From Dacryopinax spathularia (lineage: Eukaryota; Basidiomycota; Dacrymycetes; Dacrymycetales; Dacrymycetaceae): DNA of 64,000 bases. Within the stretch, counting starts at the first letter, position 1; every line of letters begins with the position of its first letter. The notes beneath the pieces are model-generated. The model did no database searches. It saw only the letters and a list, made by a program, of their open reading frames with translations, and was not told the origin of the DNA. This document shows, piece after piece, positions 2,450 through 55,892 of the stretch. The position numbers and the translations under genes were made by a program. Where the stretch lies: assembly GCA_037974965.1 (NCBI GenBank), contig JBBPFI010000010.1, positions 62,001-126,000 on the forward strand, in the 5' to 3' direction.

Positions 2450-4763
2450 ATGAATCCCTTCTCTGCCCTGAAGGGACCGGCATTCAGAGGTTTCTTTTCT
2501 TCCGCACGGAGAGGTGCTGGTCCGAGGATACAGCAGCGATATGCATCCACTTCTACACCGGGACGAACACGGCGACGGGTCTTGTACGCTCTTGGCGGGA
2601 TAGGAGCCGTAGCGGGCACGGTCGTAGCGGTCGACAACATCTGGTACGAGCAGAGTCTCGGCCGAACAGGGCGTGCGTTCTTCTACGGGTGCGCCCCTCT
2701 CCCCCCGCATACATCCACACATACAGCAGTACTGACGAGAAGCGGGGCAGAGCGCTCATCGCCCTCGACTACAAACTCAACTTCAACCCGTCCAACGTGG
2801 ACCACATCGAGCAGCTCCACTCACGCGTCGCCCGCCGCCTCCACCACGTCTGCACCACAAACGGAGGAGGGTTCATCAAGCTCGGCCAGTCACTCGCGAT
2901 CCAAGCTGCCGTCCTGCCCCGTCCGTACCGAGAGGCATTCGCGAACATCTTCGACGCGGCGCCGCAGATCCCGTACGAGGACGTTGTTCGGGTGTTTAGG
3001 AAGGAGTTTGGCGTGCGCCCGGAGGAGGCGTTCGAGGTGTTTGAGAGGAGGGCGATTGCGAGCGCGAGTATTGCCCAGGTGCATAAGGCCAAGCTGAGGG
3101 GGACGGGCGAGTGGGTGGCGGTTAAGGTGCGTGCGGCGTGCGGGCGGGCGCCCTGATGTCGTGTGAATTCTGTTCATCCTGGTGCACAGGTCCAGAAACC
3201 GGCGATCCCGGTCCAGATCGAGTGGGATCTGTTCTCTTATCGGTCGTTGCTCTACGTCTACGAGAAACTCTTCGACATCCCGTGCTACTTCATCGCCGAC
3301 TGTACGTGCCCCTGTCCTACTGTACCACAAGACCTTCTGACCTGCGGCAGACGTAACCGACCAAATCCGAAAAGAGACCGACTTCGCAAACGAAGCCCAG
3401 AACGCCGAGCGCACGCGGGCGTTCATCGCCTCCGAGCCCAGCCTACGGGGGAAAGTGATCGTCCCCCGCGTAATACCCGAATGGACAAGCAAGCGGGTCA
3501 TGACGGCTGAATATGTGGACGGGGCGCGGTTGACCGATCGGGCTAAGCTGGCGGAGTGGGGCGTGCAGGTCAAGGAGGCGATGGATATTGCGCTGAATAC
3601 GTTTTCGGCGATGATCTTTGCTTGGGGTTGGGTGCAGTGAGTCCTACCCGACCACCTGCCTCGCGCCTATCTGGTATAACCCGATTCGTTTATCAGCTGC
3701 GATCCACACCCTGGGAACGTCCTGGTCCGAAAAGACCCAGCACACCCCACCCACCCACAAGTAGTATGCCCCGCTCCCTCCGCACCCTCTCCTCCCGCGC
3801 TGTGGATCCATGAACTCACAACCCCCGCAGATCCTGCTCGACCACGGCCTATACATCCACCTCCCCGAGCCCTTCCGACATCAATACAGCCTCCTCTGGC
3901 GGTCCCTGTTCGCAATGGACACGGAAACGATCGACCAGATCGCCCGGTCTTGGGGGATCGGGAATTCCGACATGTTTGGTGCGTCCCCCTCACTCCCATT
4001 TCCCCTCCTCACCTAGTGCCTTCCCCTCACTCCTACCTGCCTGCCCTTAACGAGCTCAGGTTGCTGACGAAAACATGTGTATGTAGCATCCGCCACCCTC
4101 CTTCGGCCTACGAGGCTAAAACGGAAGCAACCCACGCTCAAGGCAGACGAGCAGCGGGACCAGCTCTCCCGGTTCGAGCAAGAACGGAGCGTCAAGCTCC
4201 TGCTCAAGACTCTGCTGGAAAATGAGAAGGTTCGTCCTCCCCCTCCTGCCTCCCCCTCCTGCCTCCTCCCTTTCCCCTCCGTCCTCCCTCCTCCCTCCTC
4301 CAGCTTCCGGCCTCCTCCGGCCTCCGGCCTCCGGCATACGCACCCTTTCTAACGCGCAAACCAGCTAATACCGCGAGAAATCATCTTCCTAACCCGGACA
4401 ATGCGCATGATGCAAGCGAACAACCAAGCCCTCGGCTCGCCCTCCAACCGGATAAACATCCTTGCCCATTGGGCCGTTACGGGGCTCGCTACCAACCCTC
4501 TTCCCTCCTCCTCCTCCTCGTCGCTCCTGCTCTCGAGGTCGATATTCAGTCCGAGCGCAGTAGTGGGGTGGGTGAAGAGGACCCTGCAAGTCTGGGCGTT
4601 TCGCTTGACGTTGGTGTTGATTGATCTCACGTTCATGCTCAGCAAGGTTAGACAGTGGTTTGTGAGGGATCAGGGGTTTGAGGAGATGTTGCAGAGGCAG
4701 TTGACGGGGATGGCGAGGGACGAGTTGGGGATCGAGTTGGATCAGGATGCCTTTTCGGGCTGA
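2450..4763 (+). CDS. Mitochondrial UbiB/ABC1-family atypical kinase, MCP2/ADCK1 (Cqd2) type
   Basis: Exons 2450-2688, 2730-3126 (or from 2727), 3190-3301, 3351-3636, 3697-3760, 3831-3978, 4087-4229 and 4365-4763 encode about 595 residues. The N-terminus is basic, Ser/Arg-rich and lacks acids, followed by a Gly/Ala hydrophobic segment at about 44-60, as expected for an inner-membrane mitochondrial protein. UbiB hallmarks are in order: the KLGQ motif (FIKLGQ, about residue 129), the Ala-rich ASIAQVHKA loop, VAVKV, the catalytic HCDPHPGN at about 345-352, and LLDHGLY at about 368-374 in place of DFG. The DHGLY variant is typical of ADCK1/yeast Mcp2 rather than COQ8. In yeast, Cqd1/Cqd2 proteins influence coenzyme Q distribution and mitochondrial lipid homeostasis; that role is inferred here. 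Confidence 0.93.
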
Positions 4764-5034
4764 GGGGGGGCGTGTGCAGCGCATATACAGTATGCTAGAT
4801 GTGCGATGCCTTTTCTTGAGTGACGGGTGTGTGTGTGTAAGAGGGTACTGTACGAACATAATGCGACCGTTGTTGTACAGCTCAGAAGTGAGGTATATGC
4901 GTGTCGAAAGTGCGCATTTAGTATGCTACATATATGTAAAGTGCTACGAGTGTACTGATACTGTACTGTTACATCCCTCTCTGATCCTACATCACCAGCG
5001 AGCAAACGAACTCCAATCCACTACTACAGCTACA

Positions 5035-5594
5035 CTAAAGAGCAAGCGGCGAGCAATTAACACCAATCAACCCGCTCTTCATCTCCTGCGAACCCTTACA
5101 GCACACCTGCTCCGTCGAACACTGCCCGCCAGCCTGTAAGATACTCGCAAGCGGCGAACACGCCAAGCCCATACTAGCCCCACCCTCGGGGCCGAGCAGC
5201 GAGAGAGGCAGCCCAAGCAGCCCAGTGAGCGCGGACGCGGAGGCGGAAGAGTGGGAGAGGGTAGAGTCGCAGCAGTATTGCCCTGTGACGTTACAGTCGC
5301 CGATGGTGTCGTCTTGTCTTGCTGCTAGGGCTATAGCGCTGGAAGGGGACGGGGAGGGGGCTGCGGGGGAGGGGAAGAGGGGAGGGGCGCATATAGTTAG
5401 CTTTTTCGGGGGGTGAGAGGGAGAGGGAGAGGAGGCTTACTGGGCAGGCCGAGCGTTGGGAGGGTCGTGGGCGTCGCGTAGTCAGACGTTGTGCTCGTGC
5501 TGCTCGTGGTCGTGATCGTGGTAGTGGTCGTGGTAGTGGTAGGGAGCGCAAAAGCGCCGGCGATGAGGAGAGCGAAGGCGTAAAAAGAGTGCAT
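5035..5594 (-). CDS. Class I hydrophobin
   Basis: Two exons (5594-5441 and 5360-5035) give 159 residues. Residues 1-18 are a typical signal peptide (MHSFYAFALLIAGAFALP), followed by a Thr-rich stretch. The mature part has the eight-cysteine hydrophobin pattern: C-X6-CC, about 36 residues, C, X12, C-X5-CC, X14, C, with five residues after the last cysteine. Spacing and the long CC-to-C loop fit class I. Hydrophobins are secreted and self-assemble into amphipathic layers on hyphae, spores or fruit bodies. The intron follows a donor GTAAGC and removes in-frame stops; the next acceptor downstream would give a stop, so this splice choice is forced. A TATA-like CATATAA lies about 100 bases upstream. 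The Thr-rich linker before the first Cys is unusual in length and purity. Confidence 0.88.
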
Positions 5595-6473: not shown

Positions 6474-7648
6474 ATGTCCAGCACGACCAACCCGACCACC
6501 ACCAGCACTCCCAGCGGGGACAACCTCAACCGACCCGGCTCGACCTGGGCAGACAAAGACGGCGTCTACCGCCGAGCCGTCTCCTCCTTCCGGTCCAGCA
6601 TCTCCACTGAGCCCGGCTCGACCCACCCACCCGAAGCAGGCCGGTACCACCTGTACGTCTGCCTCGGCTGTCCCTGGGCGCACCGGACGCTCGTCGTTCG
6701 CGCGCTTAAGGGCTTGGAGGACCTGATCAGCATTAGTATTGTCAGCCCGCATATGAGCGAGGATAGGAGGTGGGTGTTCGCTACGCAGGACGACTTTCCG
6801 GGGGCGACGGAGGACCATATTTTTGGGAAGAAAGATTTGGGCGAGGTGTATCTCGCGGCAGAGGCGAACTATGATGGCCGGTGCGCACTCACTCCTACCT
6901 CTCGCTCTCTGTTGGAGTGAGACTGATGAGGAGACAGGTACACCGTGCCAGTGCTGTTCGACAAGAAGCTGGGCAAGATCGTGAATAACGAGAGCGCCGA
7001 GATTATCCGCATGCTGTACCATAACTTCGACGCGCTCCTACCTGAGGGCAGCGCGGAGCGCGAGCTCGACTTGCTGCCGCAGGACCTAGAGAAGGAGATC
7101 GACGAGATGAATGCGTGGGTGTACGACACGCTGAACAGTGCGCACATGCCTCCTTTCTCCTCAAAGACCCCATACTGATCGCATCCCAGACGGAGTGTAC
7201 AAAGCCGGCTTCGCCACGACCCAAGAAGCGTACGAATCCGCCCTCCACCCCGTCTTCGCCTCCCTCGACCGACTCGAGTCCCTCCTCTCCCGCCCGAACG
7301 CCGGCGGCCCGTACCTCTTCGGCCCCCGCCTGACCGAAGCGGACGTCCGCCTCTACACCACTCTCATCCGGTTCGACACCGCCTACTACGAGGCGTTCAA
7401 GCTGAACCTCAAGCTGATCCGACACGATTACCCCGCGCTGAATAGGTGGATGAAGAACCTTTATTGGAATAATGGGGCGTTTGGGGGGACGACGAACTTT
7501 GAGCATATTAAGCATATGTATCATTGGTCTAGGATGCTGGTGAGTCCGATGCACTTGGCCTCTCAGAGGGATAGCAGGCTGACCAGAGAACTAGAACCCG
7601 AATAGGATCATCCCCGTTGGACCCGAGCCGCCTATCGAGCCTCTGTAA
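6474..7648 (+). CDS. Glutathionyl-hydroquinone reductase-type GST (Xi/ECM4-like), copy 1
   Basis: Exons 6474-6880, 6938-7137, 7190-7539 and 7595-7648 encode 336 residues. The family signature GCPWAHRT carries the catalytic Cys66. Further conserved blocks are YTVPVLFDKK, IVNNESAEIIRM, GVYKAGFATTQEAYE, LTEADVRLYTT and a C-terminal NPNRIIPVGP. These cysteine-type GSTs use glutathione to reduce glutathionyl-quinones and take part in quinone detoxification and redox defence, normally in the cytosol. There is no targeting signal. Copies 2 (44273-45586) and 3 (51058-52312) share its splice positions at the NGVYK block and before the C-terminal NP block. Exon starts are rich in C-ending codons and exon ends in G/T-ending codons. 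Confidence 0.93.
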
Positions 7649-10648: not shown

Positions 10649-12484
10649 ATGGCCATCGGTCCACCGCTCGACGACTCATGGGGCGCCGTCCTAATCGGGG
10701 TGTTCCTCGCCATCTTGTGCGTCTTCCTTCTTTCCCCTGCCAGCCGTCGACCGCCTGGAGGTGGCCTGAGGAGGAGGAAGAACGTTGGCTAACGAGGATG
10801 TTCTACATAGCTTGTACGGTCTTCTTACTCTGCAAGTATACGTTTATCAGGAGATGTTCCCCCGAGATGCTTGGTGGCAGAAGGTGATCGTCGCTACCGT
10901 CTGGTCCGTCCCTCCCCCTCCTCTCCTCTCCCATCCAACCCCCTTGCCATCCCACCCCCCTCCCATCCCCATCCGAGAAGCGGCTGCTAACCCCACCCCC
11001 CCGCGGTCGCAGGATCCTCGACACCCTCCACACCATAGCGATATCCCACATGATCTACACGAACCTCATAACCAACTTCGGCGACTACGTCGCCGTAGGA
11101 CACAACACCTGGTCCTTCAACGTCAATGTGCTCATAACGACCATCGTCGCCGCTATCTCCCAGGTGTTCTTCATTCATCGGTGTTGGCGATGTGCGTCTC
11201 TTCTCTCTTCTTTCTTCCTTCTTCCTTCCTCGGTTTTCCTTTTTTTCTCTTTGATCGGGCTGGGGGGCTGATGATTTTGTGGGGTGGTAGTTGATAAGAG
11301 CGTGTTTAATACTGTTGCGAGCGGGATTATATTGGGTTTCGCGGGCGTGCAGTTCGCTTTTGGTTCACGTACGTCCTTCCATCCTTTTCCTCCCCGAGCT
11401 CGCCCTGACGCCCTCGCTGGCAGTATGCACCCACCTCACCTTCATGCTCTCCCAATACGCCCAGTTCCTCGACTACAAATGGGCCGTCGACACCTGGCTC
11501 GGCAGCGCAGCAGTGACGGACATACTCGTCTCGTGTGCGTTGGTCAGGAGCTTGCTGATGAAGAGGAACGAGGTGCAGCGGACGAGGAATTTGATTGAGC
11601 AGCTTATTAGGTGGACTGTGACGACGGGGTTGATCACTAGGTTCGTCTTTTTTCTTCTCCCCTCTGCTCTCCTCTCCTCCCCTACTCCTCCCATCTCCGT
11701 GTCCCTTCTCGTCTGCTTTTCCCCTCTCTTCCCCATTCTATCTTTTGCGTAGAAGAAAGAAACATGCTAACCCGCCGTTCCCAGTGTCTGGGCCCTCCTA
11801 GACCTAGCCGTCTTCACAGGCAGCGAAACGACCCTCATCCACCTCTTCTTCAACATAATGCTCGCCAAACTATACGCAAACACGCTCCTCGCATCCCTGA
11901 ACCACCGTTCGCCCAACAGACCCGAGAGGGATTCCCTCCCTCCTCCAAACCGGACGCGGACGCAGAGCACGCAGGCGAACTCGCGGTCGAGCATCTCCCT
12001 CGGGGGGCTGGGGAGGTCGAGGGCTAGTCGGACGCTCACGTTGACTACGACGACGACGATGAACTCTGCCGCTGCAGGGGGGAGGAGGGGGACAGGGACG
12101 GGGAGACAGAGTGTGAGCTTTGCGCTGGACTCGCAGGTCTCCTCCGGCGGAGCTGGAGCAGGGGGAGGTGGGTATGAATACGACTTCGACCTCCTAGAGC
12201 GAGGCGGAGTTCGAGTGGACGTGCAGACTAGTACGACCCTCTCCAGCAGCGGGAGGCGGTGTGAGAGCCCCACTGAGCTGAAGCTGGGGAGCGGGAGCGG
12301 GAGCCAAGGGAGCTTGAGCGAGAGCATGGAAATGGAAATGGACGAGAAGGATGTTGATGGTGGGGGAGAAGGGTCGCCCGGGGGGACAAGCCCGAGCGAG
12401 ATGCTGCCTACGCCCGTGTCGGTGATGCAGCTGCCGAGGGAGCCGGAGAAGGCGCTTTGTCTGCTTGAGGAGGAGGGTCGTTAA
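10649..12484 (+). CDS. DUF6534-like multi-pass membrane protein
   Basis: Exons 10649-10716, 10811-10903, 11013-11191, 11291-11368, 11424-11640 and 11785-12484 give 444 residues. The N-terminal 230 or so residues contain about seven hydrophobic segments with the signatures of a mushroom-expanded family: LDDSWGAVLIGVF, FLYGLLTLQVYVY, WILDTLHT, IYTNLITNFGD, and a final LYANTLLASLN. The remaining 200 residues are a hydrophilic, Ser/Gly/Glu-rich cytoplasmic tail with acidic patches. The topology resembles a seven-helix receptor, but no ligand or function is established for the family. All six exons agree in phase and the family motifs span every junction, which supports the model. The family name is given from memory of its motifs. 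Confidence 0.85.
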
Positions 12485-15239: not shown

Positions 15240-18200
15240 ATGTCCACAACCGCAGCCCCAACAACGACCCCATCCACCTCGCCCCCAAGTCCCTCCAAGC
15301 CCGTCCGCACCACCACCGACTCCTCCCAACAACCAACCACCAGGCAAGAGAAGCTCAAAACGTGGCTCTCCGCCCATCTCCCGGACTACCTCGCCCACGC
15401 CCTTGTCACCCGCAGGACATGGAAGACCTTTGTCAGGTGTCTGGTAGCTTTTGTGGTGATGATGATCATGCTCGTCGACGACGTCACACTGCGCGTACTG
15501 GGGCAAGCGGGGTTCTTCGGGTTGATTATCAGTTTGATGTTGCCCCCTAATGTGCGTTTTCGGCTCTTGCTTAAGTGGAAGGAGGAGGTGCTGATGTTGA
15601 GGTCTGCGGGGGCGTAGATGGCGGTTGCGCTGTTCTTTATGGCTGTGCTTACGCTTGTGGTGGGGATGTGCCTGGGTTGGGCATGGGGCTGCGCAGCGAT
15701 GGCCGCCTCCCTAGCCGGTACGCCCATCTCCCCGTCCTCTAAATGTCCCACTGACACGTCCGGCATACAGCCCGCTCCCAAACCCTCCTAGCATCCCAAT
15801 ACACCCTCGCCCAATCCCACCTCCTCCCCGGCATCGCCCCCGACGCCCAATTTCAAGCCTTCGTCTTCCAAGGCCTCTTCCTCGACCCGCGCAGCTCGGC
15901 CGTCTTTGGCGCTTTTTTCTTTTTGGGCACGTTTGGGTTTGGGTTGATTAGGGCTTATGCACCGAGGATGGCGTTGTTGGCTATTTTTGGGACTATCGTG
16001 CTTGGTACGCTTACTTTTTTCTTATGCGCTCCCTTCCCCTGGGAGATGGTAGAGGGAGACGCTGACGAGTTAATTGATAGATGTGATGTGCTCGTACGGC
16101 CCGCTCTTCCCCTCAGCGCAATACACGCTCGCGGTGAGCAGCTCCTATCACGACGAGATAGGCGTGGAACTCAAAGAGTCGGTTCCCGCAGACCCTCTTC
16201 CTTCTCCCCGTATCGATCTACATTGCCGTTGCGCTCGCGAGCATACTGTTGATCTTCCCGGAGAGTATGAACCATGTTTGGCTGTACGTCCTCCTCCTCC
16301 CCACTCCCCCTCTCCTCCTTCCCTGGTCATCACCCCTGACCTATCTGACATCCCGCTCCAGATCAACCCTCACCGACCAAATCCTCACCCCAGCACACCA
16401 AATCCTAACCTCCCAACGCACACTCCTCTCCCTCCCCCCCACCTCCACAGCCCGCTGGTCCGCCCTACGCGACGAGCACAGCGCCACAGGCCGAAAAATG
16501 ATCGAAGCTACTCAAGCGCTCTTAGGCCAGACAGGGATGGTCGAGCTGGAGTTGTCGAGGGGACGGCTGGGGCCGGGGGACTTGAAGGGCTTGGGGGGGA
16601 GGTTGATGGGGTTGGCTAGTCGGACTATGTACGTCTGCTTTCTGTCGTTTATCCTCTCATGCTCGCGCATATATGCGCATATATCTGAGGGAACCGTGTT
16701 TGTGGGGAGATGAGAGCTGACGGGCGTCTGTCAGGGGGTTGATGAGCTTTATGATCCTCGTTGATGAGAAGAACAAGGCGGATCAAGTGCTCGACACTCC
16801 TCCGGACGGAGAAACCAAGGACCGCAACAACAACAACAACAACAACGATAACAACGCGAACGGCACCAACCCCACCACGAAGGAGAAACCTCACACTCCC
16901 AGCGGTATCCTCACTCCCACTCCACATTCAGGACCAGGAACAGGCACCGCCACCCCTAACCCTCAAGCGCAGCGATTTGACGCCCTCCGCGCCCGCGTCC
17001 GGCAGAGAGAACAGGAACATGGACATGATCTGGACAACCTTGTCCCGCTTTTGCTGGACGGGACGGGGCCGTTGTTGGAGGCTTGTGAGGTTGCGCTGAA
17101 GGGGAGGATTGATTGGCTTACGTGCGTTCTACTATCCCGCCTGTAAGCAGGATGAGCTGATGAGGTTGGAAGGTACGTCAACTCGACCCGCTGGCGAGGC
17201 TCCAAGAGCGAGAAAGAAGCCGAGAGCATGTACCAAGAAGCGAAAGCGCAAGCCGATGCCGTCCGCACCGCACTCGCTCAACTGCGCACCGATACGCGTC
17301 TACGCGTCCTCGCCCCGTTTGAGAAGTACTTCGATCCCAATACTGGCGAGCTCCTACCCGAGATCAGGAGGAACGTACCCGGCGGGAATCGGATGTTTGC
17401 TGCCAACTCTCTCTTTCTCTGTTTCGTTTTTGGTACGACGCTGAAGTCGTATGCGGAAACCTTGCTTGATTTGCTCGACGCTACCGTTGAGTTGCAGAGG
17501 AAGAGGGTGAGGAATAGGATCTGGTTCCCGAGCGGGTTTGGCAAGATCTGGAGGAAGATCATCGCTCGTCACGGAGCTGAGGGGACAGGGCTGGAGATTG
17601 GCGTCTCGGCTGCTGTGGCGAGCGCGGAGCAAGACCCGGAAGAAGTGGCGGAGACGAACGAGGACGACATGGACGAGGACGACGAGGAGCTTTTGCATGA
17701 GGTTAAGCCTACTACTCGGGATCCCGACAGCAGCCCGCCACGAACATGGTTGGGGCGGAGTTATGTCCGCCTTACGGCCTTGTTTCGCTGGTTCATGCGC
17801 CCCGAAGCGCTCTTCGCCCTCCGTTACAGCGGCGTCTCCATTTGTCTCTTTGCGTTCACTGTGCATCCCAATACGGCCTACTTCAACTATGCCAACCGCG
17901 GTCTCTGGGCACTCATCATGGCCCAAACGGGAATGGGCGTCTACGCCGGCGAGCAGATCGCCAACTTCCTCGTCCGTCTCTCCGGCACGCTCATCGGCCT
18001 CGTCCTAGGCATGCTAGCGTGGTACATCGGCGCCGCGAAGGGGAACGGCAACCCCTACGGAATCGTCATCATCACCACTGTCATCACCGCGCCCTTCCTG
18101 TTCATCCGCGTCTGCGGGCCACAGCAGTCAATCGTGATCTTCCTCATGACGGGGACGATGATCATCTTTGTCGTCGGCTACAGCTGGGTCGACTCGCACA

Positions 18201-38062: not shown

Positions 38063-40630
38063 TTATTGATCGCTATCGCTCTGCTCATCGTCTGACCGTG
38101 ATTGGCGGCGACGTTCATCATCATCAGTCTGCCGCGCGTCGTCCGACCTCCCATCCCGATCGCGATCTTCCCCGTGCCCGTCCTCGTCGTCTTCTTCTTC
38201 CTCGTCTTCGTCTTCGTCGGAATCTTCGCGGACCGGGAGAACGGGCGCGTTTTGTTTTTGCTTGGCCCAAGCGTGTGCCATCTGGAGGAACTTGAAGCTC
38301 GCAGGGTGCGCTTCCCGCTCGTCGTCGGCGAAGACCATGTCCCAATCTGCCGGACAATATACATCAGCATCGCTTTCGGTGATAAGCACAGGCGGGGACA
38401 TACATTCTTCTTGTGTGCCAGACTCGTCCACTTTCCGCCATCGCTTGGTGACCTGAGGGAACATATTCTGGACCTTTTCCTGCTGCTCTGGCGTGCCATT
38501 CTCAGCCTCGAATGACTTCCACGCTTCGAGCAATACGACCCGCTATACGCGTATGAGCACCTGGGAGAGATACACTGAAAGCGAATACGCACCTCCTCCT
38601 TGAGACCCTTTTCCTTGAGGTTCTTATACCCTCTCTCAAAGATCGCCCTAGCCTTCTCCGGGTCCCCATTCGCGTCCTCCCCCTCGGCATTATCCATGCT
38701 CGCAGCCTCAAACAGCGCATACGCAACCCAGACCTTCACATGCCCCGTCTTCTCCAACAACCTTTCATACAGCGCCCTCGTCCGCTCGCGCTCGCCTTCC
38801 TCAAACTCAAAGTCGATGTACGCTTTCCAGAGGACTTCGGGCATGTTGAGTGCTGGTTGGGAGGTGGCGAGCTCGAAGATCGCTCGGGTACGGTCGTAGT
38901 CGCCGAGCGTGCTTTCCAGTTCGGCGAACTTGATCCACGCTGCGCAGTTTGAGGGGTCGAACTGTATCGTCCTCTTTGTCAATCTCTTGTTCATGCAGAT
39001 CAAAGCCGCGGGGCACGCACCTCAAGATACTTCTCATACAGCGTCCTCACCCTGTCAAACTCCCTCAGCTCAAGCTCGAGCTGGATATACCCCTTGAACA
39101 GCGCCTCCTTCGGACACATCCCAATAGCCGCCCCGAGCGTCTTCCGGGCAGTCTGTAGGTCCAGCTGCCGGATCTCGAACCGCGCGTATTGTAGCCAGAG
39201 CTTGGCGAATGTGAACTGCTTGTGTGGGACGAGCTGGATGGCGGTTTTGTATATTTGTCGGGCGCGGGCGATGTCCTGCCGGACGCGTCAGCCGGAGATT
39301 AGTAGTGAGAGGAGGAGCGTGGAACGTACCTTTGTCTCGATCTCCTCGAATAGGGCGTAGTCTAGCCATAAGAAAATATATCGCCTCCAATGCCGTTTCT
39401 CCCCACCCGGCGGGACCTGCGCGACCGCTCGTTCATACACGTCTCTCACCTTCTCCGGCGAGTAGCTCGGATCCTCCTCGATCTCCGCGCGGTATGCGTC
39501 CTCCTCCAGGCGGGCATAGTCGAACCAGGTATCGTAGTTCCTCGGATCGGCCGCAAGCTCTTCTTCATACTGGATCCTCCTCTTCCCCAGTACGGTAGCC
39601 TCGACGCCCGACCGATCACCGTGTTGTTTCTCGAACCGGGTGTAGGCGGTGTACAGCGACTGGGACTTTGACCTCGGCAGCCTCGAGAGCGCAAACTTGT
39701 AGATCACCCTCGCGCGCTCGTACTCCTTCTGCCTCGTCTCCATCCTCGCAAACGCCGCAAACACCGCTTGAGCCTTCTCGACCTGAGCCTCGTCGTCGCC
39801 AAAGAACTCGAGCGCAGTCTGGAAGACCTCTCGGGCCTTATCGACTTTCCCGCGTTCTTCCTCGAACTTGCCCCATTTTACCCACACGCGCGGCTCGGGC
39901 CGGACGGCAACCCACCGCTCGTAGATCGCACTCGCCCGGTCGAGCTCCTCGTACCGCTCCTCAAACTTGATGTACGCCTGCCAGGCCTTATCGTCCGGCT
40001 CCCACTTCATCCATCGCTCAAACACCTGCCGCGCACCAGGGATATTCTGGAGCAGCTCCTCGAGGTAGACGTACTTGTACCAGAGCTGGTCGATCCGCGG
40101 GAGAAGGGTGACGGCGCGGTCGTATAAGTTCCGCGCGTGCTGGACGTTGCGCGCTTTCAGCTCCATCTCGGTGTATCGTAGCCAGAGGTTGATGTCCGTC
40201 GGGTCGACATCGAGCGCGCGCTCGAACACGGACCTCGAGCGCGCGAACTCGTTCTGGCTCGCTTCCCACGTTGCGTACTGCACCCATTCTTTCATCTGCT
40301 CAAAGCATCAGCAACCCGACTCACCATGGCCGCGCTGAGTGAATGGGGAGGACGTACACTACTCCGGTTCCTCCGTATCCGATCCTCAAACTCCTTCCTC
40401 TTCCTCCCCTGATACTCATGCAGCTCCTCATAGTCCTCCACGCGCTGCTTAGGCGCCTTGAACGCAGTCTCCTGTCTCTCCTGCGCCTCGCGAAGAAGTT
40501 GCTCGGCGGTGATCTACGCCAGCTCGCATCAGCGTCTGCCATCCTCAAAGGACGTGGATTTGTGCCGAACCTGGATAGCCGCGGGCGCGCGGTTCTTCAC
40601 CCGCGGGGCTCGCGATTCTTGGGCGCTCAT
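38063..40630 (-). CDS. CLF1: Pre-mRNA splicing factor CLF1/Crooked neck (HAT-repeat protein)
   Basis: Seven exons (40630-40571, 40513-40358, 40295-39330, 39275-39021, 38961-38593, 38542-38404, 38346-38063) encode 742 residues. The N-terminus [18 protein letters not shown] and the block FEDRIRRNR are diagnostic. From about residue 73 a continuous array of HAT (half-a-TPR) repeats follows with W..YA.FE/ARA.FERAL periodicity, ending in [10 protein letters not shown] and [10 protein letters not shown]. The last 60 residues are Asp/Glu/Ser/Arg-rich and disordered. CLF1 is a scaffold of the Prp19 (NTC) complex, needed to activate the spliceosome. Given the intron and microexon load of this region, it is a core part of the machinery that reads these genes. 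Confidence 0.97.
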
Positions 40631-41397: not shown

Positions 41398-43065
41398 TTA
41401 CTTCAACCCCACCCTCCCCCCTTCCAGCGGCCACCGTCCCCTCAGCTCCCCCACCCCCCCAAACCCCTCCTCGCCCTCCAGAGAGGGGAGGGTGATCCTC
41501 CCCCCAGCCGAGTCCACCACGTCTACCCCCTCAGCCTCGCATAACGTGAGGACCTTGCGCAGGAGCTTGTGGTAGTATGCTTGTTCGCGCGTTTGACGTT
41601 CGGTTGTTGTTGGGCTTATAGGGCTCGTGGGGCTCGTGGGGCTTGCCGGACTGGCGACCGAGCCGGCCGGGCCAGGAGCGGAAGAGGAGGAGGAGGAGGT
41701 CAAGCCGGGAGCAGGGGTAGCCCGAGGAGGGAGTACGTCCGCCAGCCTGAGCCTCTCCAGCTTTGGGAACCTCCTCCCGCCTCTCCCACTCCCTCCCTCT
41801 TCTCCCAGCTCGTCGCCCCCGACCCTCCCCACCAACCCCCCCACAACGCCAACAACACTCCGCCAATGATCCATCTCCCTTAGCACATTCCCCCTCTCGC
41901 CCGCAAGCCCCAAAAAGTTGCCCAGCGCCACCTCCCTCATCCTCATCCCTCCCGCCAAGCCCTTCCCCGCCGCCCAACCCCCAACAGCTTCCCTCGTATG
42001 CTCGCACGCTGGGATCGCCAACTTCTTCAGATTCGGACAGAGCGACACCACGCGACATAAATGCCCATGCCCGTGTCCTTCTGCGAGCCAGAAACGGAGG
42101 ACGTCCAGCTTTGCGCCGTGTTTTGCGAAAAAGGGCTCGACTGCTCGGGGCGAGAAGGGCAGTACTGGCCTGAGGGAAGAGGAGGGGAGTCGGTAGGGCG
42201 TTTCGGGTGTTGTTAGTGTTAACTCTTTTAGGCGGGGGAGGGCGGAAGCGGGGAGGAGGGAGAGGAGGAGAGATGATGCGCGGGAGAGGACGGGAAGGTC
42301 TATACGGAGGCTTGTTATATTGCTGCCAAACGGAAGGGTGGAGGGGGAGGAGAGGGAGAGCGCGTCCAGCAGAGGTGGGATAGAGGAAGAGGGATGAGAA
42401 TCCTTCTCGGCCCCGATGGAGAGTTGTTCCAGTCCTTCAAGGGAGGCGAGCAAAGGCAGGCATTCCACCGGCATCTCCCGCTTTGGGAACCCGACACTTC
42501 GCAGCCTTGGCCCGGCAGCCCCAACCGCCGCTTGGAGGAGCTTGACGGGTATGTCGACCGAAAGGTAGTTATTGAGCTGATTAAACCTCAGCTGTTCCAA
42601 CCCCGTGCACTGGGCCAGAAACCCCTCGAGCAGCTCGTTAGGGAAGGACTCTTCGTAGTGCACGTCCAACCTCTCGATCCCCATGCTCTCCACCGGAATT
42701 GGTCGCGAGCGGAGGAAAGCGCGTACTTGCCCCGGAGAGCGGAAGAGGACCCAGCGGTCGAGCGAGGGCCGGAGCTCGGCGTACCACCCGCTGTTTACGC
42801 TCAGCGCTGCCTGCATGGTGCGGAGCCAAGCCCGGTACTGGAGCTCGATGAACCTGTTCTCGGCTTGGAACGCGCTCCTCAGTTCCCTTGCGCCTGGCGC
42901 GTCGGGTGAAGGGGGGTGGAAGGCGTCGTCGTATGAGAGGTTGGGGGAGGTGTAGGGGTGGATATGCGGGATGTGGGAGAGGATGATGAGCCAGAGTTCG
43001 TCGGGCAGTTTGTACATTGCTGGGAGGGGGAGGGACGGGTCGCCTGCGTAGAGAGGGGCGAGCAT
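41398..43065 (-). CDS. F-box protein with leucine-rich C-terminal region
   Basis: Single exon, 555 residues from the ATG at 43065. Residues 20-35 (LPDELWLIILSHIPHI) match the start of an F-box, which binds Skp1 in SCF ubiquitin ligases. Downstream there are irregular Leu-rich blocks such as GLEQLRFNQLNNYL, GLEQLSIGAE, RLKELTLTTPE, LDVLRFWLAEG and LERLRLADVL, as in divergent LRR substrate-recognition domains of mushroom F-box proteins. A Ser/Pro/Thr-rich insert (about 460-500) precedes the C-terminus. An in-frame ATG at 43185 lies directly beside a TATATAA box, so the ATG at 43065 is preferred. The substrate is unknown. Confidence 0.78.
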   Translation of the reverse strand: MLAPLYAGDPSLPLPAMYKLPDELWLIILSHIPHIHPYTSPNLSYDDAFHPPSPDAPGARELRSAFQAENRFIELQYRAWLRTMQAALSVNSGWYAELRPSLDRWVLFRSPGQVRAFLRSRPIPVESMGIERLDVHYEESFPNELLEGFLAQCTGLEQLRFNQLNNYLSVDIPVKLLQAAVGAAGPRLRSVGFPKREMPVECLPLLASLEGLEQLSIGAEKDSHPSSSIPPLLDALSLSSPSTLPFGSNITSLRIDLPVLSRASSLLLSLLPASALPRLKELTLTTPETPYRLPSSSLRPVLPFSPRAVEPFFAKHGAKLDVLRFWLAEGHGHGHLCRVVSLCPNLKKLAIPACEHTREAVGGWAAGKGLAGGMRMREVALGNFLGLAGERGNVLREMDHWRSVVGVVGGLVGRVGGDELGEEGGSGRGGRRFPKLERLRLADVLPPRATPAPGLTSSSSSSAPGPAGSVASPASPTSPTSPISPTTTERQTREQAYYHKLLRKVLTLCEAEGVDVVDSAGGRITLPSLEGEEGFGGVGELRGRWPLEGGRVGLK

Positions 43066-44272
43066 GTTGAGCGGTGGTGGTGGCGAGGGCGAATACAGCG
43101 AGCCCGCTGTCGGAATGAAGGTGTGAGAGAGGGGTGAAGAGGTGGATGTATGCGCCTCAGAGCGGACATCGATCCCACCCAACATTATATACCCTCCCAC
43201 CCAATCCCAAATGTGACAGCAGATACGCAACGAGCAAGCAGTGCAGTGCAAAGATAAAGATAAGCCGCCCGCCTACTAGCCCAAGAGGACGCGGGTCCCG
43301 CCTCCTCCTCCTCCGCTATGAAAAGCGCGTCATACGCGTCCGCGTCCGAGCGCGTTTCATACGCCGTAAGTATTATTAATAAATAATAATGTCTCTTCCC
43401 GTCCAGCTCTTTCCTCCTCGCTCGCTGCGAGAGTTGACTGGTCCGGGGGAGTCGGCATACTTAGTATGAGCGAGTTGGCTGTGTATATGCGCGTGAAAAT
43501 GCGTCGATTTTCGTAGGTAACTTATACAGAGGCAGGAAGTATGTTGGACTGTCTCGTTGTCTCTCGTTTCCCCATCCCCTCCCGCGGACCACGTCGTGTC
43601 TGGGCCGGCGAGTTTCAGTACTGTGTTTCGTGTCTCGGCCGTTCACCGATCCTAGGTAAGCAAGCAAACGAGTGATTCATGTTCCACTTGCTCCACGACT
43701 CTATCAGTACTAGTACTGGAAGGCTCTCCTTCGGCAATTTGGGACTGGCATGCAGGCTGACCGGCGCAAGTGAAACCCGCTAGCTCCGAACAGGCAGTAT
43801 GGCGCACATATATATATGGCAATCCACCCGCTCGTCTTTCTGCAAACTACCTTTTTGTGAACGGCCTCGGGCGGTCTTCTTGGCCGCTTGTTACGAGGTC
43901 GGGGAAAACCGTGCTCGTATTCTCTGGTGCGTTTGGCTTTGCATTGTACTGTACTGTAGTTGGAGGATGTGGACCGCAGCTTTATTGGCGAGGAGGCGCG
44001 CCGCATGCAGTCTGGCAGCCAGACCCAAGGAAGGAGGGGCTGCCAGGCTAAACATTCCATACCGGATAGGCTTATACTACTGTATACCTATGAATCCTGT
44101 ATTGTACATACTGTACGGCCAGACCGCGGGCGATTGTTCAAGCTCCTTCCCTCTTCCTGGCCCCTTCGGCATTGTGGATAATCGGCCTCCTCCAGTTCGC
44201 GTACGGTTCCGTCCTGCCCATCATTGATTCTTGCGTCAGCGCCTTTGCTGTGCGGCAGAGGAATGGAAGGGC
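43066..44272. other. Intergenic region
   Basis: This region contains the F-box promoter (TATATAA at 43185-43191), an AT-rich pocket TATTATTAATAAATAATAAT at about 43370-43389, and the 3' flank of GST copy 2. No gene was recognised. Confidence 0.5.
43185..43191 (-). promoter_or_regulatory. TATA box of the F-box gene
   Basis: The minus strand reads TATATAA, 120 bases upstream of the chosen start at 43065. It directly abuts the earlier in-frame ATG, which is why that ATG is unlikely to be in the mRNA. Confidence 0.45.
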
Positions 44273-45586
44273 TTACGGAGGCTCGATATCCGGTTTTGGG
44301 CCGAGGGGGATGATGACGTTCCCGTTCTGTCCTTTCCGTCAGCCACACACTCACCTACCAAGCGTTACAAAGGAGAACAAAGAACGAGAAAGGGGCGCGG
44401 AAACGCAGAGCAGAAGGCAAGAGCAGAACGCACCCGATTGCCAATCCCATAATACCCCCTCTTAATATGCTCAAACCGCGTCGTCCCCCCAAACGCCCTC
44501 TTCCACTCTCCCCAATAGAGCCTCCTGAGCCAGCTATGCAGCACGGGATACCCATGCCGGATCGTCCGGATGTTGCACTTGAACGCACCGACATAAGCGA
44601 CGTCGAACCGGATTAGGGTGGTGTAGAGGCGGACGTCGGCTTCTGTTAGGTTGGGGCCGAGGAGGTAGGGGCCGCCTGTGTGCGGCGAGGAGGAGGCGTG
44701 GGTGGGAGGGGTGGTGAGGTGGGATTCGAGTCGGTCGAGCGAGGCGAACAGCGGGTAGAGCGCGGATTCGTACGCTTCTTGGGTGGTGGCGAAGCCGGTC
44801 TTGTACACCCCGTCTGCACGAACAAACATAAGCACAACTATCCTACGGGAGTCACGGAGAAGAAAGTACGTACTGTTCACAGTCTCGTACACCCATTCGT
44901 TCATCTCGTCGATCTCTTTCTCCAGCTCCTTGGGTAGCGGGTTTAGTTCCCTCTCTTTGCTGCCGGGCGGGAGGAGATGGTCGAACTCGTGGTAGAACAT
45001 CCGGATTATCTCGCTGCTTTCGTTGTTGACTATTGTGTGGGTTTGGGTGTCGTAGAGGACGGGGACGGTGAACCTGGTGCACTAGCATCAGCTGGCTGCG
45101 TTCTTCGCGGTGAGCCTCAGCAGGAGAGGAGACGCGGGACCGGTGGGGGAAAGAAGAGAAGTGGCACGCTGGGGAACACGCAACGAACCTCCCCGTATAC
45201 CCCGGCTCCACACTCAAATACACCTCCCCCATATCCGCCTTCCCACCCACCAAATCCCTCGTACATCCCTCAAACTCCCTCCCTTCCCCCCTTGCCTCCC
45301 GCTCCTCCGTCAAGAACGGCCACCTCCTCCCCTCCCCGAGCCAAGGAAGGGTCACGCTCATCCCTATTACCCCCTCCAGCCCCTTGAGCGCACGGACGAT
45401 GAGGGTGCGGTGCGCCCAGGGACAGCCGTAGGATACGTAGAGGTGATATCTGCCTGCTTCGGGGGGGTAGCGGGAGCCTGGGGCAGAGGAAATCTGGGAG
45501 CGGAATGAGGAGACTGGGCGACGGAATGTGCCGTCTGGGTCGGCGAAGTTTGGGATGGTGGGGTTCGTTTCTTGATTGTTTGACAT
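44273..45586 (-). CDS. Glutathionyl-hydroquinone reductase-type GST (Xi/ECM4-like), copy 2
   Basis: Exons 45586-45189, 45073-44874, 44813-44434 and 44326-44273 give 343 residues. The active-site block YGCPWAHRTLIVRALKGLEG holds Cys55. The conserved FTVPVLYDTQ, IVNNESSEIIRMFYHEF, GVYKTGFATTQEAYE and LTEADVRLYTTLIRFD blocks follow. All three intron positions match copy 1. It differs by a Glu/Arg/Gly-rich insert between the thioredoxin-fold strands (around 90-110), an extra Thr/Pro/Ser/His insert near 235-250, and a C-terminal junction where GYYGIGNR replaces the usual HYHWS-type sequence. It is cytosolic by lack of signals. Role as for copy 1; the inserts suggest a different substrate preference, which is inference. 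Confidence 0.92.
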
Positions 45587-51057: not shown

Positions 51058-52312
51058 CTAGAGCGGCTCGACGTTGGGCTCTGGGCCGACGGGGACGATC
51101 CTGTGCGGGTTGATCTGCACATGCATCGTCAGTCTTCCAGTAGTAAGGAGAGAAGGTGGGGCTAACGAACCTGCGTATGACTCCAATAATAATGCACCTT
51201 AATATGCTCAAAGTTCGTCGTCTCCTTAAACGCCTTCTCATTCCAATACAAGTTCTTCAGCCACCTATTCAAATGCGGATAATCATGGCGAATCGTGCCG
51301 ATGTTGCACTTGAAGTGTCCGACGTAGACAGGGTCGAACCGGACTATGGTCGTGTACAGGCGGATGTCGGCTTCCGTCAGGCGGTTGCCGATTAGGTAGG
51401 GCGAGTTGGAGGAGGAGAGGAGGGACTCGAGGCGGTCGAGAGAGGCGAAGAGGGGACGGACGTTGGATTCGTACGCTTCTTGCGTGGTCGCGAAGCCGGT
51501 TTTGTACACGCCATCTATCCGTCGAGGTCAGTTACGACTATGGAACGATGGGAGGGTGAGGACGGGGAGCGAGACGCACTGTTGACGGTATTGTACACCC
51601 AATCATTCAGCTCGTCAATCTCCTTCCTCAGTTCCTCAGGATAGAAATGCAGCTCGGCCTTCTCCTTCGGCAAGAACTCGTTGAACGCCTCATTGAATAT
51701 CCTGATAATCTCGCTGCTCTCGTTATTCACGATCGTCCGCAGCTTCTTGTCCCACAGAACGGGGACGGTGTACCGCGCGCTATAGTCCTTCTGGGCGGTG
51801 AAGTACAGGTCTTTGATGTGCTTGGCGCCTTCGTTCGGGTCGCTGTCCGCGCCGGGGAAGGCGTCGGCAGAGGCGAACGGCCAGCCGTCTTGTCCCATGT
51901 GGGGGGAGACGACCGAGACGGGGATGAGCTCCTCGAGGCCCTTGAGCTTGCGTACGATGAGCGTGCGGTGCGCCCACGGGCAGGCATAGGAGACGTAGAG
52001 GTGGTACCGGTCTACGTAGCGCATCAACTATGCTCGTCAGATACTGGGCGAGCGATGCGCACCCTTCTCAGGCTCGAACTTGCCCCCTTTCTTGATCACG
52101 TCCCGGAAAGACGATTCCTGCCGCTTGAACTGGCCGTCCTTCCCCGCCCAAGCAGTAATATCCTTCTTCTCAGTAGACATCGCGTATGTTCTCCTAGGCG
52201 TTTGCGTACGAACGGGTGTGCGAGAAAGCGTAACAAACGAGCGGGCAGCAGGAGAACGAAGATAACGAGGAGCTGAGCGGGTCAGTTGGTGGTTAAGTAC
52301 CAACAGACGCAT
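51058..52312 (-). CDS. Glutathionyl-hydroquinone reductase-type GST, copy 3, with mitochondrial-type leader
   Basis: Exons 52312-52063, 52011-51580, 51514-51171 and 51114-51058 give 360 residues. Residues 1-44 are rich in Arg, Ser, Thr and Leu with no acidic residue, like a mitochondrial presequence. Met45 (MSTEKKD) starts the part that aligns with copies 1 and 2, so a second, cytosolic form from this ATG is plausible. The active site is YACPWAHRTLIVRKLKGLEE with Cys94, followed by YTVPVLWDKK, IVNNESSEII, GVYKTGFATTQEAYE, LTEADIRLYTT and NPHRIVPVGP. It shares the NGVYK and C-terminal intron positions with the other copies, lacks the intron before YTVP and has its own intron before RYHLY. Confidence 0.93.
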
Positions 52313-53002
52313 AAGGCGGTCGGCGGGTGTTGAGAACGGGCCTGAGAAGCCGCGTTCTCAATGTGATCCTTATGACGCCTTCCCGATTTGGGAGTATGCT
52401 CCCCATTGCTGATCTAAGCCGTCACTCAGCATTCCGATCTCTTGGCGCATCTTCGATCTCACACCAACTTCCGTTTGTCATCGACGTCAACGGGGGCAAC
52501 ATCGGCTCGCTGCTGCTGCTCAGCAGCCCTCAACAACCCTCGGCGCTATTTTCCCGGTCGGAAGGTGTCTGATTTGGGGAAAGATCATCACGTGATTGTA
52601 TACGTTGTGCTTGTTACAACCACTCAACCGCTCCCGGGCTCCTTCTTCCTTCGCGACTGTGAACTTGCTTCACTCCCAGATGCTTTCTAAAGGTCAGCTA
52701 ACCTTTCCAATAGAGCATCAGCCCGAGCCCTTGAGGGGTAAGATGAGCAGAGTCCTCCCTTATTTCTCTGCTGCAGATAAGGCGCCAGGCATGCTTAGAC
52801 GCCGATTGGTTACCGTCTTCCTGACTCGTCACCCGAAGAGCCAGATATAGTAACCTCTAGTGCTTGCATGTGAGGCAGTTCCGTGCACATAGACGCCGTG
52901 GGATACATATATCCGCTGGATGTAGGCCCCTCCGTTGGTCGCGTACGTGGCTCTTCACTTTCTCTTGATACCTCAACCAACATTATTGTTTACACCGTCG
53001 TC
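52313..53002. other. Divergent intergenic region
   Basis: This region holds promoters for GST copy 3 and the first tandem membrane protein. Composition is balanced, with no gene recognised. Confidence 0.55.
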
Positions 53003-54045: not shown

Positions 54046-54856
54046 TCTGCGCTGGCAAATGGTGCCTCCGCTGCGTCTGTGTCGTACGGAGTCCCCAGGA
54101 CACGGACTTCTTTTTTTCTGGGTAAGAACGGGACAAGTTTCGATGAGCTTAGATATGTGTATGAACACCGTAATGACGCGCGGTGTATATCTTTGCGTCT
54201 CTTCAAGTTCTGACTCCCATCCTTGAAGTCGTGGCTTCGATGCCAGCCAACCGACTCGCTGCCGTCGGGCTTACGGGCCAGACTTTGAGTCGCGGCGTCT
54301 AAGTGCATATCCGGACTTCCAGCACCTGATTTGCCTCACGGCGCGTCTTACCTACATGTATACCCCATACCTTGAAACATGAACACCTCACCCCTACCTG
54401 TCAGGTTTCACTCCTTCGACCAGGTTCTGCAACTCGAGAGTTATTACTGTATCTTCTAGATTACGTTGCGCGTTCACCGTTCGGAAGCGCGGTTAGTGCA
54501 CCGTCAGGGTCATCATGGGGCGGTGCGCATGGTCGAGGTCCAACCGTCCAGGAGGCGCGGCTCCCCTTCCTTCTCTCCAACCGTCTTCTGATGATCAACC
54601 CTGAGCGATCGATAGATTGTGATCTCCAGCCAATCGCATCTCTACCCGTTGGCGGAATGGGAGGGGCGATGTATGAAAGGGCACGGACCAAGCTGTGACC
54701 TCGCGGGGTCATGTGCAAACCCGGACGGCGTCATCACCCGGCTGTGCCTCTCGGCGTCTTTACCCACTGCCGTTTGTCACTGAATAAAAGCGACCTTATC
54801 GCAGCGTCTATAATGCATCTTCGACCCTCAGCTGTCAGCTCTCAACCCATTCGACC
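54046..54856. other. Spacer between tandem membrane-protein genes
   Basis: This region is 811 bases long. It should hold the 3' end of copy A and the promoter of copy B; TGAATAAAAG at about 54780-54789 could be a weak TATA element. No gene was recognised. Confidence 0.5.
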
Positions 54857-55892
54857 ATGTCCTGTAATTCCCTGAGTGTGGCCAACTCAGACATTGATGG
54901 TACGATACCCATCCGGGCGCTAAACAACACGAACTGAAATTAGGCGCCTAGGCATCGGCATCCGTGCCTCAATGTATGCGCAAGCATTTCTGGCGCTCCT
55001 TCCAATTGGCATCGCTCTCTTCGCGGGAGACTACGACGTAGACAACTTTCAGAAACATCTGGCCGACGACATCAAGCTGAATGCTACCGCGGTACTCGCA
55101 ACCGGCTGCGCCCTGCTCGTCGCCTCCTTCATCCAGGCGGGGCGTGGCTCGCTCGACCTCTACGATGCGCTTATCGTGCTGCAGCTGAGCTGGCTTAACA
55201 ACCTCACTTCCGCCTTTCCAACCCTCCTCCGCGCAGTTATGGACGACAGCGACGGTGCCGTCAAGGAACAATCTTTTTGGCGCAAGGTCTTTCTCTATAT
55301 GCTGCACTGCACCGCAACGGGCGCCTTCGGTATCTGGGTATTTCACGACATAAACGCCTGGACGCCGGGATGCGCAAGCGAGTACTACCTCATGGTCTGC
55401 GGCCAACCCCTGCAAGCGAACGGCCCCGCTGTCCGTATTGCCGTCCTCGTCGTATCCGCCATCGCCGTCGCGCCCGTCATCAACGTCCTAGCAATGTTCG
55501 GCGTCATCGTCCTGATCTGCAACATTGAAGGTTTCCTGTGCCGCTGTAATGCAGGCCATACACCCGTGCTGGCTCTCCTAGCATGGGCAACGCCGAGCGT
55601 GCTCATCATCCTCGGCACAGAGCAGTTCATTACGAAGAACAGCGACGTCATCGTGGGCGCGTCCGACCAGAGCGCATGGACCTTCGGCCAGATCCTGGCG
55701 CTGCTGCTTGTCTTCCTCCCGCTCTGGACAGCGCTAGATCGGACGATAACGCTCTGGCGAAGCCCGGCACAGCCTTTGAACCCGCAGATTGGTGTACCAA
55801 GAGACGAGGAGGAAGGAGCGGAAAATATACCCCTGAATCAGTATAAACCGCCAAGCCCGATGAGGGGTCCGCCCAGCTACAGGTCATCATAA
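54857..55892 (+). CDS. Seven-helix-like fungal membrane protein, tandem copy B
   Basis: Exons 54857-54899 and 54952-55892 give 327 residues. It starts MSCNSLSVANSDIDG, then GIGIRASMYAQAFLALL, aligning with copy A across the same phase-1 intron after the DG codon. Shared features are the basic-to-acidic DDIKLNA loop (DDIKMNA in A), the SLDLYDALIVLQLSWLNNL helix, the INAWTPGCASEY loop and a hydrophilic tail, here PQIGVPRDEEEGAENIPLNQ and Pro/Ser-rich. An earlier acceptor 10 bases upstream would give a stop at once, so the second TAG is the acceptor. Sequence divergence from A is large, so the duplication is old. Function unknown. Confidence 0.82.

What the first reader, a model, noticed from the sequence alone, without database searches (positions are those of the whole stretch)
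2450..55892. Exon-scale switch in synonymous codon choice: C-ending at exon 5' ends, G/T-ending at exon 3' ends
In many exons, codons near the exon start end mostly in C (CTC, GCC, ATC, TAC, CCC). Codons nearer the exon end switch to G or T (TTG, GAG, GGG, GTG, TAT, CAT, AAT). Examples on both strands: 3351-3636, 7190-7539, 11424-11640, 15771-16004, 16362-16628, and minus-strand 51514-51171 and 30375-30020. The pattern resets after each intron, so it is a sawtooth tied to exons, not a gene-wide gradient or a chromosomal strand skew. It is weak or absent in the microexon calpain gene, CLF1 and LCB2. It could mark exons for splicing, reflect transcription-linked mutation, or position nucleosomes. 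I know of no description at this scale, but I cannot search.
Basis: seen in the sequence. Interest (0 to 1): 0.72.

Follow-up and report, generated by a model that had tools for sequence, protein, structure and literature searches.

The report
Exon sawtooth in fungal base composition
In many genes of this fungus the silent letters of longer exons run from mostly C/A at the start to mostly G/T at the end and reset at the next intron, a very strong version of a known weak exon-edge effect whose cause is still open.

Summary
In all 7 named exons third-position G+T (K) rises from 0-23% in the first third to 87-94% in the last. Self-trained gene models on 314 kb extend it: exons of 150-700 nt have K slope 0.396 against 0.052 +- 0.010 for synonymous shuffles; 32 of 36 window exons and 171 of 208 others slope upward. 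No gene-wide trend; both strands agree. It is gene-dependent: 58 of 94 genes exceed +2 s.e., none is below -2; in 17 further gene models only 2 are clearly positive.

New here: it reaches amino acids and UTRs; it is weak or absent in exons under about 140 nt; introns of sawtooth genes are pyrimidine-rich; in one window paralog set the reset moves with the intron; some intronless genes cycle too. Not seen: global RNA-fold stabilisation, CpG context, intergenic blocks.

Best reading: pre-mRNA splicing/exon-recognition composition, A/C after the 3'ss, C/U in the intron, G/U before the 5'ss (0.42). Main rival: strand-asymmetric mutation around splice sites and gene ends (0.3). Weaker exon-edge biases are known; polarity, reach and size differ. 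Relatives could not be examined.

The parts
3351..3636 (+). named exon; third-position K 23% to 83% by halves
7190..7539 (+). named exon of the glutathione S-transferase-like gene 6474-7648; K 16% to 66% by halves
11424..11640 (+). named exon; K 9% to 88% by halves, steepest slope (1.27) of the 36 window exons of 150-700 nt
15771..16004 (+). named exon; K 3% to 76% by halves
16362..16628 (+). named exon; K 2% to 71% by halves
30020..30375 (-). named exon, ubiquitin-conjugating enzyme domain; K 21% to 81% by halves
51171..51514 (-). named exon of the third GST-like paralog; K 23% to 71% by halves
6474..7648 (+). paralog g3 (exons 407/200/350/54 nt); intron at alignment column 146
44138..45586 (-). 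paralog g13 (exons 398/200/380/50/76 nt); shares the column-146 intron
51058..52180 (-). paralog g16 (exons 118/432/344/57 nt); lacks the column-146 intron, has one at column 58; its M/K zones follow its own introns
38063..40630 (-).
41398..43185 (-). intronless gene model with about three M-to-K cycles (by eye)
60234..63988 (-).

Best explanation
Most likely a composition-level splicing (exon/intron recognition) signal in the pre-mRNA, kept by weak selection in a subset of genes. After a 3' splice site (or the transcript start) about 120-150 nt of exon avoid G and T; before a 5' splice site (or the transcript end) about 120-150 nt avoid A and C; the intron between donor and branch point avoids A and G. 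Each zone thus uses two letters that cannot Watson-Crick pair with each other, so RNA around an intron stays locally unfolded and the splice sites lie at compositional steps (G-rich to C-rich at the 5'ss; C/A-rich and T-poor from the 3'ss on). In short exons the two demands cancel; in longer ones they meet near the middle. Shown: the pattern, its splice-site registration, its movement with introns in one paralog set, its covariance with intron pyrimidine content, and the lower local folding. Inferred: that selection rather than mutation is the cause, that splicing is the selected step, and which factor reads it (unknown).
For: In 30 strong genes K is .63-.77 over the last 72 nt before the donor and .19-.36 over the first 72 nt after the acceptor, while the intron starts G-poor and pyrimidine-rich. 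Gene slope against intron pyrimidine content rho 0.59 (80 genes), 0.42 after GC3; against intron GC 0.31. Paralogs: columns 1-57 K 9/53, 6/43, 27/37 and columns 96-145 K 29/40, 43/48, 10/39 in g3, g13, g16, opposite as their introns predict; of class-differing codons with a clear prediction 29 of 33 (g3/g16) and 35 of 42 (g13/g16) agree. The K step across introns is positive in 115 of 139 and grows with intron length, rho 0.36, 0.27 without genes 98 and 99. Folding with pairs limited to 50 nt: native is 8.8 +- 1.3 kcal/mol less stable than synonymous shuffles in 45 introns of sawtooth genes, 1.5 +- 0.7 in 45 of weak genes; 10.7 +- 1.9 less stable than reversed polarity. Additive 3'ss and 5'ss effects reproduce the nearly flat short exons.
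Against: First exons are A/C-rich from the start codon and last exons G/T-rich to the stop, where no splice site lies. Intronless genes and interiors of long exons are blocky. The two halves are near mirror complements (C .64 A .19 G .14 T .03 against G .58 T .25 C .13 A .03), which a strand-switching mutation process would give naturally. Splice-site accessibility changes little: donor +.034 +- .016, branch region +.021 +- .009, acceptor none; none in the unrestricted fold. The intron-length trend vanishes within genes (rank r -0.05). Within genes there is no link with donor score (r 0.06) and a weak one with branch score (r -0.20). Amino acids shift too, which needs appreciable selection. 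Paralog pair g98/g99 disagrees (17 of 40), though one gene model there looks wrong.
Confidence: 0.42

Rival explanations
1. Strand-asymmetric mutation. DNA next to splice sites and gene ends (for example polymerase pause or break sites) is repeatedly single-stranded on the strand whose 3' end faces the site; loss of amino bases there (C and A to T and G) makes the coding strand G/T-rich upstream of each intron and A/C-rich downstream.
For: The shift is along the amino/keto axis with mirror-complement halves and nearly constant GC; it affects codon positions 1 and 2, amino acids and UTRs; gene ends behave like splice sites; intronless cycles could mark other pause or break sites.
Against: Intergenic DNA shows no such blocks; introns, even those of 90-400 nt (31 in sawtooth genes), follow a pyrimidine axis and have reversed GC skew from 6 bases after the donor; no CpG or other strong neighbour context at two-fold sites; strength follows intron pyrimidine content (rho 0.59) more than intron or flank GC (0.31, 0.29).
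Confidence: 0.3
2. Nucleosome-linked composition: introns, promoters and terminators act as linkers, the first nucleosome after each is A/C-rich on the coding strand and the last before each G/T-rich.
For: Plateau of about 120-150 nt and sign change at about 150-200 nt; damped rebound in exons of 700 nt and more; little or no pattern in exons under about 140 nt; gene ends act as boundaries. A weak nucleosome effect on codons is described in yeast (PMC2570795, abstract read).
Against: One cycle covers exons of 230-300 and of 400-550 nt alike, so cycle length does not follow nucleosome number; intergenic DNA lacks it; no nucleosome data were available.
Confidence: 0.12
3. Exon hairpins: A/C-rich starts pair with G/T-rich ends of the same exon, or across the intron.
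For: The arms are complementary in composition; cross-intron pairs rise by 6.4 +- 2.9 against synonymous shuffles.
Against: Exon fold energy equals that of synonymous shuffles (mean z -0.19) and of class-preserving shuffles (z 0.03) in 37 of 117 exons; across 40 of 110 introns no energy gain and no tuning beyond class.
Confidence: 0.05
4. Artefact of gene prediction, chance or reader selection.
For: Gene models are ab initio, without transcripts; some look wrong.
Against: Seven reader-named exons recovered exactly; observed slope about 35 sd above shuffles; none of 94 genes below -2 s.e..
Confidence: 0.02

Closest known systems
Exon-end amino-acid and codon trends linked to exonic splicing regulation (Warnecke, Parmley and Hurst 2008, PMC2374712; includes the basidiomycete Cryptococcus neoformans)
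   Same: Composition, including amino acids, changes towards exon-intron boundaries in an intron-rich fungus and is read as splicing constraint (passages and section 9 read).
   Different: That work followed up to 34 codons from each end and found same-direction 5' and 3' trends in vertebrates and no 5'-3' correlation in Cryptococcus (rho 0.02). Here the two ends are mirror opposites, the switch lies near mid-exon, and third positions swing from 17% to 84% K in the 40 strongest of 117 exons.
Exonic splicing signals strengthening with intron length in vertebrates (Dewey, Rogozin and Koonin 2006, PMC1713244)
   Same: Longer introns have stronger compositional flanks (abstract read; here).
   Different: There A-rich enhancer motifs; here broad two-letter zones, and the within-gene trend is absent.
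Selection against spurious splice signals shaping intron pyrimidine tracts (PMC10946897)
   Same: Strand-asymmetric composition near splice sites explained by selection (abstract read).
   Different: That is intronic, at the 3' pyrimidine tract, mainly in Drosophila; here the pyrimidine zone runs from donor to near the branch point and is tied to exon composition.
Nucleosome constraint on yeast codons (PMC2570795)
   Same: DNA-level constraint on codons and amino acids (abstract read).
   Different: The abstract reports a 5-6% rate difference, not a polar switch.
Replication or deamination strand skew (bacterial leading strands, mitochondria; recalled, no call)
   Same: The amino/keto axis and, from recall, comparable size.
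   Different: Those run over kilobases to megabases with one switch; here a few hundred bases, reset at introns.

Membership tests
Splicing-related exon-end composition bias | Composition departs systematically near exon-intron boundaries | tested here: met
   115 of 139 introns with a positive K step; slope far above synonymous shuffles
Splicing-related exon-end composition bias | Bias follows the introns, not the protein position | tested here: met
   One paralog set: g16 against g3 and g13, zones opposite as introns predict; g98/g99 does not agree (17 of 40)
Splicing-related exon-end composition bias | Effect absent away from splice sites (intronless genes, transcript ends) | tested here: not met
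   Transcript ends behave like splice sites; some intronless genes cycle
Splicing-related exon-end composition bias | Local to each splice site also in short exons | tested here: not met
   Exons under about 140 nt show little or no A/C-to-G/T slope
Splicing-related exon-end composition bias | Discrete enhancer motifs bound by SR-type proteins | not tested
   No motif-enrichment search was run
Splicing-related exon-end composition bias | Changing it alters splicing | not testable with these tools
   Needs experiment
Strand-asymmetric mutation | Acts on all DNA in the affected stretch, introns included | tested here: not met
   Introns follow a pyrimidine axis and have reversed GC skew just after the donor
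Strand-asymmetric mutation | Amino/keto shift with mirror-complement halves | tested here: met
   Base and codon tables by part of exon
Strand-asymmetric mutation | Direct mutation spectra show the asymmetry | not testable with these tools
   No population or relative genomes available
Nucleosome code | Phase with mapped nucleosomes | not testable with these tools
   No maps
Translational codon bias | Strongest in genes with the strongest C-ending bias | tested here: not met
   Genes with C3 of .58.65.62 (L034 first gene, L035, L038) have slopes 0.00, -0.04, -0.03; over 94 genes slope against C3 r 0.23, against GC3 r 0.59
Long-range exon hairpin | Native fold more stable than synonymous shuffles | tested here: not met
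   Mean z -0.19 and 0.03 in 37 of 117 exons

The most novel reading that the evidence does not exclude
A transcript-segment polarity field: every long enough stretch between boundaries (transcript start, splice sites, transcript end, and unseen boundaries inside intronless genes) acquires an A/C-rich first half and G/T-rich second half on each DNA strand, strong enough to set codons and amino acids, and it is rewritten when an intron moves. This would be a genome-shaping process (mutational or selective) not described before, of which exon-edge codon bias elsewhere is a faint trace.
Probability: 0.3. Interest if true: 0.88.

Novelty: new variant of a known kind. Interest (0 to 1): 0.68.

Why it matters
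If general in intron-rich fungi, it means silent sites and even amino-acid content are written by gene architecture at exon scale. That would matter for codon-usage and selection tests (dN/dS, codon optimisation, phylogenies), would give gene finders a strong extra signal (the sharpest in-exon drop lies within 15 nt of a donor-like GTGCGT that the finder read through), and offers a clean system for separating splicing selection from strand-specific mutation: in the paralogs with differing introns the composition follows the intron.

Tried and rejected
Gene-wide gradient: exon mean K against exon order r = 0.00, n = 175. Strand of the chromosome: + genes slope 0.352 (141 exons), - genes 0.456 (103 exons). 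Intra-exon and cross-intron hairpins: not supported. CpG deamination: fraction T at C/T sites in the G/T zone is .66.48.60.54 before A, C, G, T. Regional (isochore-like) effect: neighbour correlation of gene slopes 0.18 (p 0.04), 0.11 (p 0.12) after GC3, so weak at most. Compensation of weak donors: within-gene r 0.06, n = 218; branch score against downstream K within genes r -0.20, n = 234. Nucleotide blocks in intergenic DNA: none like those of coding DNA. Hidden introns as the cause of in-exon resets: 22 drops against 5.35 expected under within-exon shuffling (rises 42 against 4.45); 5 of the 22 come from one tandem-repeat gene (g109), and at least one, in g97, looks like a missed donor, so resets in intronless genes remain unexplained. 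Paralog pairs with little or no support: g3/g13 6 of 10 (shared introns), g35/g36 2 of 5, g17/g18 0 of 1, g98/g99 17 of 40; supporting: g21/g22 13 of 19, g95/g96 16 of 21. g3 and g13 share the intron, so the differing-intron case is one comparison, not two. The second-intron terms were not pursued. Rfam gave no hit in the window. Other basidiomycetes could not be examined: the output says G000 has no relatives here, and by their descriptions the other collections hold prokaryotes, phages, plasmids, viruses and metagenomes (no metagenome scan was allowed). The species was not identified.

Unused runs: one search failed (library error); one search gave no genes (the compiled program did not start, seen); one search gave degenerate gene models. 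The gene models of the 314 kb come, those of L001-L008 and L034-L039. Gene models scoring under 20 were dropped before counting: 507 exons contributed third-position sites out of 563 predicted; 94 genes had at least 60 usable sites. Fold tests used subsets: 37 of 117 exons (25 strongest, 12 middle), the 40 strongest of 110 introns, the first 45 strong and first 45 weak introns in gene order out of 132.


Full report
SETTING. The window is G000:C10:62001-126000 of a 29.2 Mb, 24-contig genome. I added 200 kb of C1 and 50 kb of C2, and wrote a self-training gene finder with one homogeneous codon model, so that it could not impose a trend along exons.

THE OBSERVATION. In the named exons third bases are mostly C or A in the first third (T 0-5%) and mostly G or T in the last third (A 0-4%). 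Write M for A/C and K for G/T. In internal exons of 150-600 nt (147) K by decile is .34 .35 .34 .39 .46 .54 .63 .67 .65 .64. Over 244 exons of 150-700 nt the slope is 0.396; 1000 within-gene synonymous shuffles give 0.052 +- 0.010, maximum 0.082. Upward slopes: 32 of 36 window exons, 171 of 208 others. By gene: 82 of 94 positive, 58 beyond +2 s.e., none below -2. There is no trend over exon order (r 0.00, n = 175) and both strands show it.

SHAPE. The switch (K = 0.5) lies near the exon middle: at about 125 nt in exons of 200-300 nt, 195 in 300-450 and 225 in 450-700. Exons under about 140 nt show little or no M-to-K slope. An additive model with M for about 120-150 nt after the 3' splice site and K for about 120-150 nt before the 5' splice site roughly reproduces this, short exons included, because the two effects cancel. 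First exons are M from the start codon and last exons K up to the stop; M reaches back about 120 nt upstream of the start codon and K about 80 nt past the stop. Intergenic DNA lacks the blocks.

DEPTH. In the 40 strongest of 117 exons of 230-450 nt, GAG goes 16 to 122, TTT 0 to 41, TAT 0 to 38, TCC 110 to 3 from first to last third, and amino acids move too: Ser, Pro, His, Thr, Ile fall; Glu, Trp, Gly, Val rise. Codon positions 1 and 2 shift mainly between C and G. The ends are near mirror complements: C .64 A .19 G .14 T .03 in the first sixth against G .58 T .25 C .13 A .03 in the last.

GENES DIFFER. Slope correlates with GC3 (r 0.59). Among 17 further gene models from kinase, sugar-transporter and aldehyde-dehydrogenase loci, only L039 (0.52 +- 0.06) and L005 (0.19 +- 0.04) are clearly positive, with L002 (0.10 +- 0.05) and L036 (0.13 +- 0.07) borderline; genes with extreme C-ending bias are flat. 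So it is not the usual translational optimum, and my 314 kb may not represent all gene classes. CLF1 is strong, the LCB2-like gene intermediate and the microexon gene flat.

INTRONS ARE PART OF IT. In sawtooth genes the intron from donor to near the branch point is pyrimidine-rich (C .42 T .30 G .12 A .14 at +6 to +11 in 100 short introns; C .45 T .31 G .16 A .08 in 31 long ones), in weak genes much less (C .32 T .29 G .19 A .19 in 160 short introns). Across 80 genes slope and intron pyrimidine content correlate at rho 0.59, 0.42 after GC3. GC skew therefore flips sharply at the donor, from G-rich exon end to C-rich intron, and T gives way to C and A at the 3' splice site. A regional mutation bias blind to splice sites would not do this; a splicing-related constraint would.

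MOVED INTRONS. Three related glutathione S-transferase-like genes lie in the window (52-64% identity; Pfam support above cut-off in g16 only, below it in g3, none in the g13 exon tested; the ECM4 name is recalled). g3 and g13 share an intron at alignment column 146; g16 lacks it and has its own at column 58. In columns 1-57 K is 9 of 53, 6 of 43 and 27 of 37 (g3, g13, g16); in columns 96-145 it is 29 of 40, 43 of 48 and 10 of 39. At same-amino-acid codons whose class differs and where the intron model predicts a clear difference, 29 of 33 (g3/g16) and 35 of 42 (g13/g16) go the predicted way. The composition follows the intron, not the protein. This is one comparison; another pair, g98/g99, does not fit (17 of 40), probably because one terminal exon model includes an intron (inference from its third-position string).

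RNA FOLDING. Whole-exon and cross-intron folds are no more stable than synonymous shuffles and show no tuning beyond M/K class. With pairs limited to 50 nt, native sequences around introns of sawtooth genes are 8.8 +- 1.3 kcal/mol less stable than synonymous shuffles (weak genes 1.5 +- 0.7) and 10.7 +- 1.9 less stable than the same codons in reversed polarity. Each zone uses two letters that cannot Watson-Crick pair with each other. Splice-site accessibility itself gains little (donor +.034 +- .016; branch region +.021 +- .009; acceptor none), so low local structure may be the target or a by-product.

UNEXPLAINED. Gene model 101 (C2) and window 41398-43185 are intronless yet show about three M-to-K cycles (by eye); interiors of exons of 700 nt or more are blockier than shuffles (sd .153 against .106). 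These, the transcript ends and the mirror-complement composition are the strongest points for a DNA-level process. Lost introns could explain the intronless cycles but could not be tested without relatives.

JUDGEMENT. Observation confirmed. I favour a pre-mRNA-level splicing/exon-recognition composition kept by weak selection (0.42) over strand-asymmetric mutation radiating from splice sites and gene ends (0.3) and nucleosome-linked composition (0.12). It belongs beside the exon-end biases known from animals and Cryptococcus (PMC2374712), but fails two features expected of that family (no effect away from splice sites; local in short exons) and differs in opposite polarity of the two ends, reach and size. 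Ten full-text searches showed, among the rows listed (title and start of abstract; some listings were cut, for example 10 of 290), no paper describing an exon-scale M-to-K sawtooth; most subscription journals are not held, so this is weak evidence of absence.

Noticed in passing
window 6474-7648 (+), 45586-44138 (-), 52180-51058 (-): Three glutathione S-transferase-like paralogs within 46 kb with differing intron positions, useful for dating intron gain or loss.
   Followed up: partly
L029, gene model 97 (C2:1000001 onward, minus strand): The sharpest in-exon K-to-M drop lies within 15 nt of a donor-like GTGCGT that the gene finder read through, so the sawtooth may flag wrong gene models.
   Followed up: partly
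window 19501-26197: About 6.7 kb without a predicted gene, upstream of a Zn(2)-Cys(6) domain gene at 26318; only four ORFs of 150 aa or more overlap 19400-26300, two of them at the downstream gene.
   Followed up: no
about C2:1037000-1039500 (L032), gene model 109: A protein with roughly 102-nt tandem coding repeats whose third-position pattern repeats with the unit; it contributes 5 of the 22 in-exon drops.
   Followed up: no
L034 (C3:2552001-2557500): Tandem aldehyde dehydrogenase genes with nearly the same exon structure; the first is strongly C-ending (GC3 .82), the second less (.65), and neither shows the sawtooth.
   Followed up: partly
introns of sawtooth genes, e.g. L039 and gene models 98 and 99: Pyrimidine-rich stretch from donor to near the branch point, 100% C/T over the 32 nt measured in L039.
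   Followed up: yes
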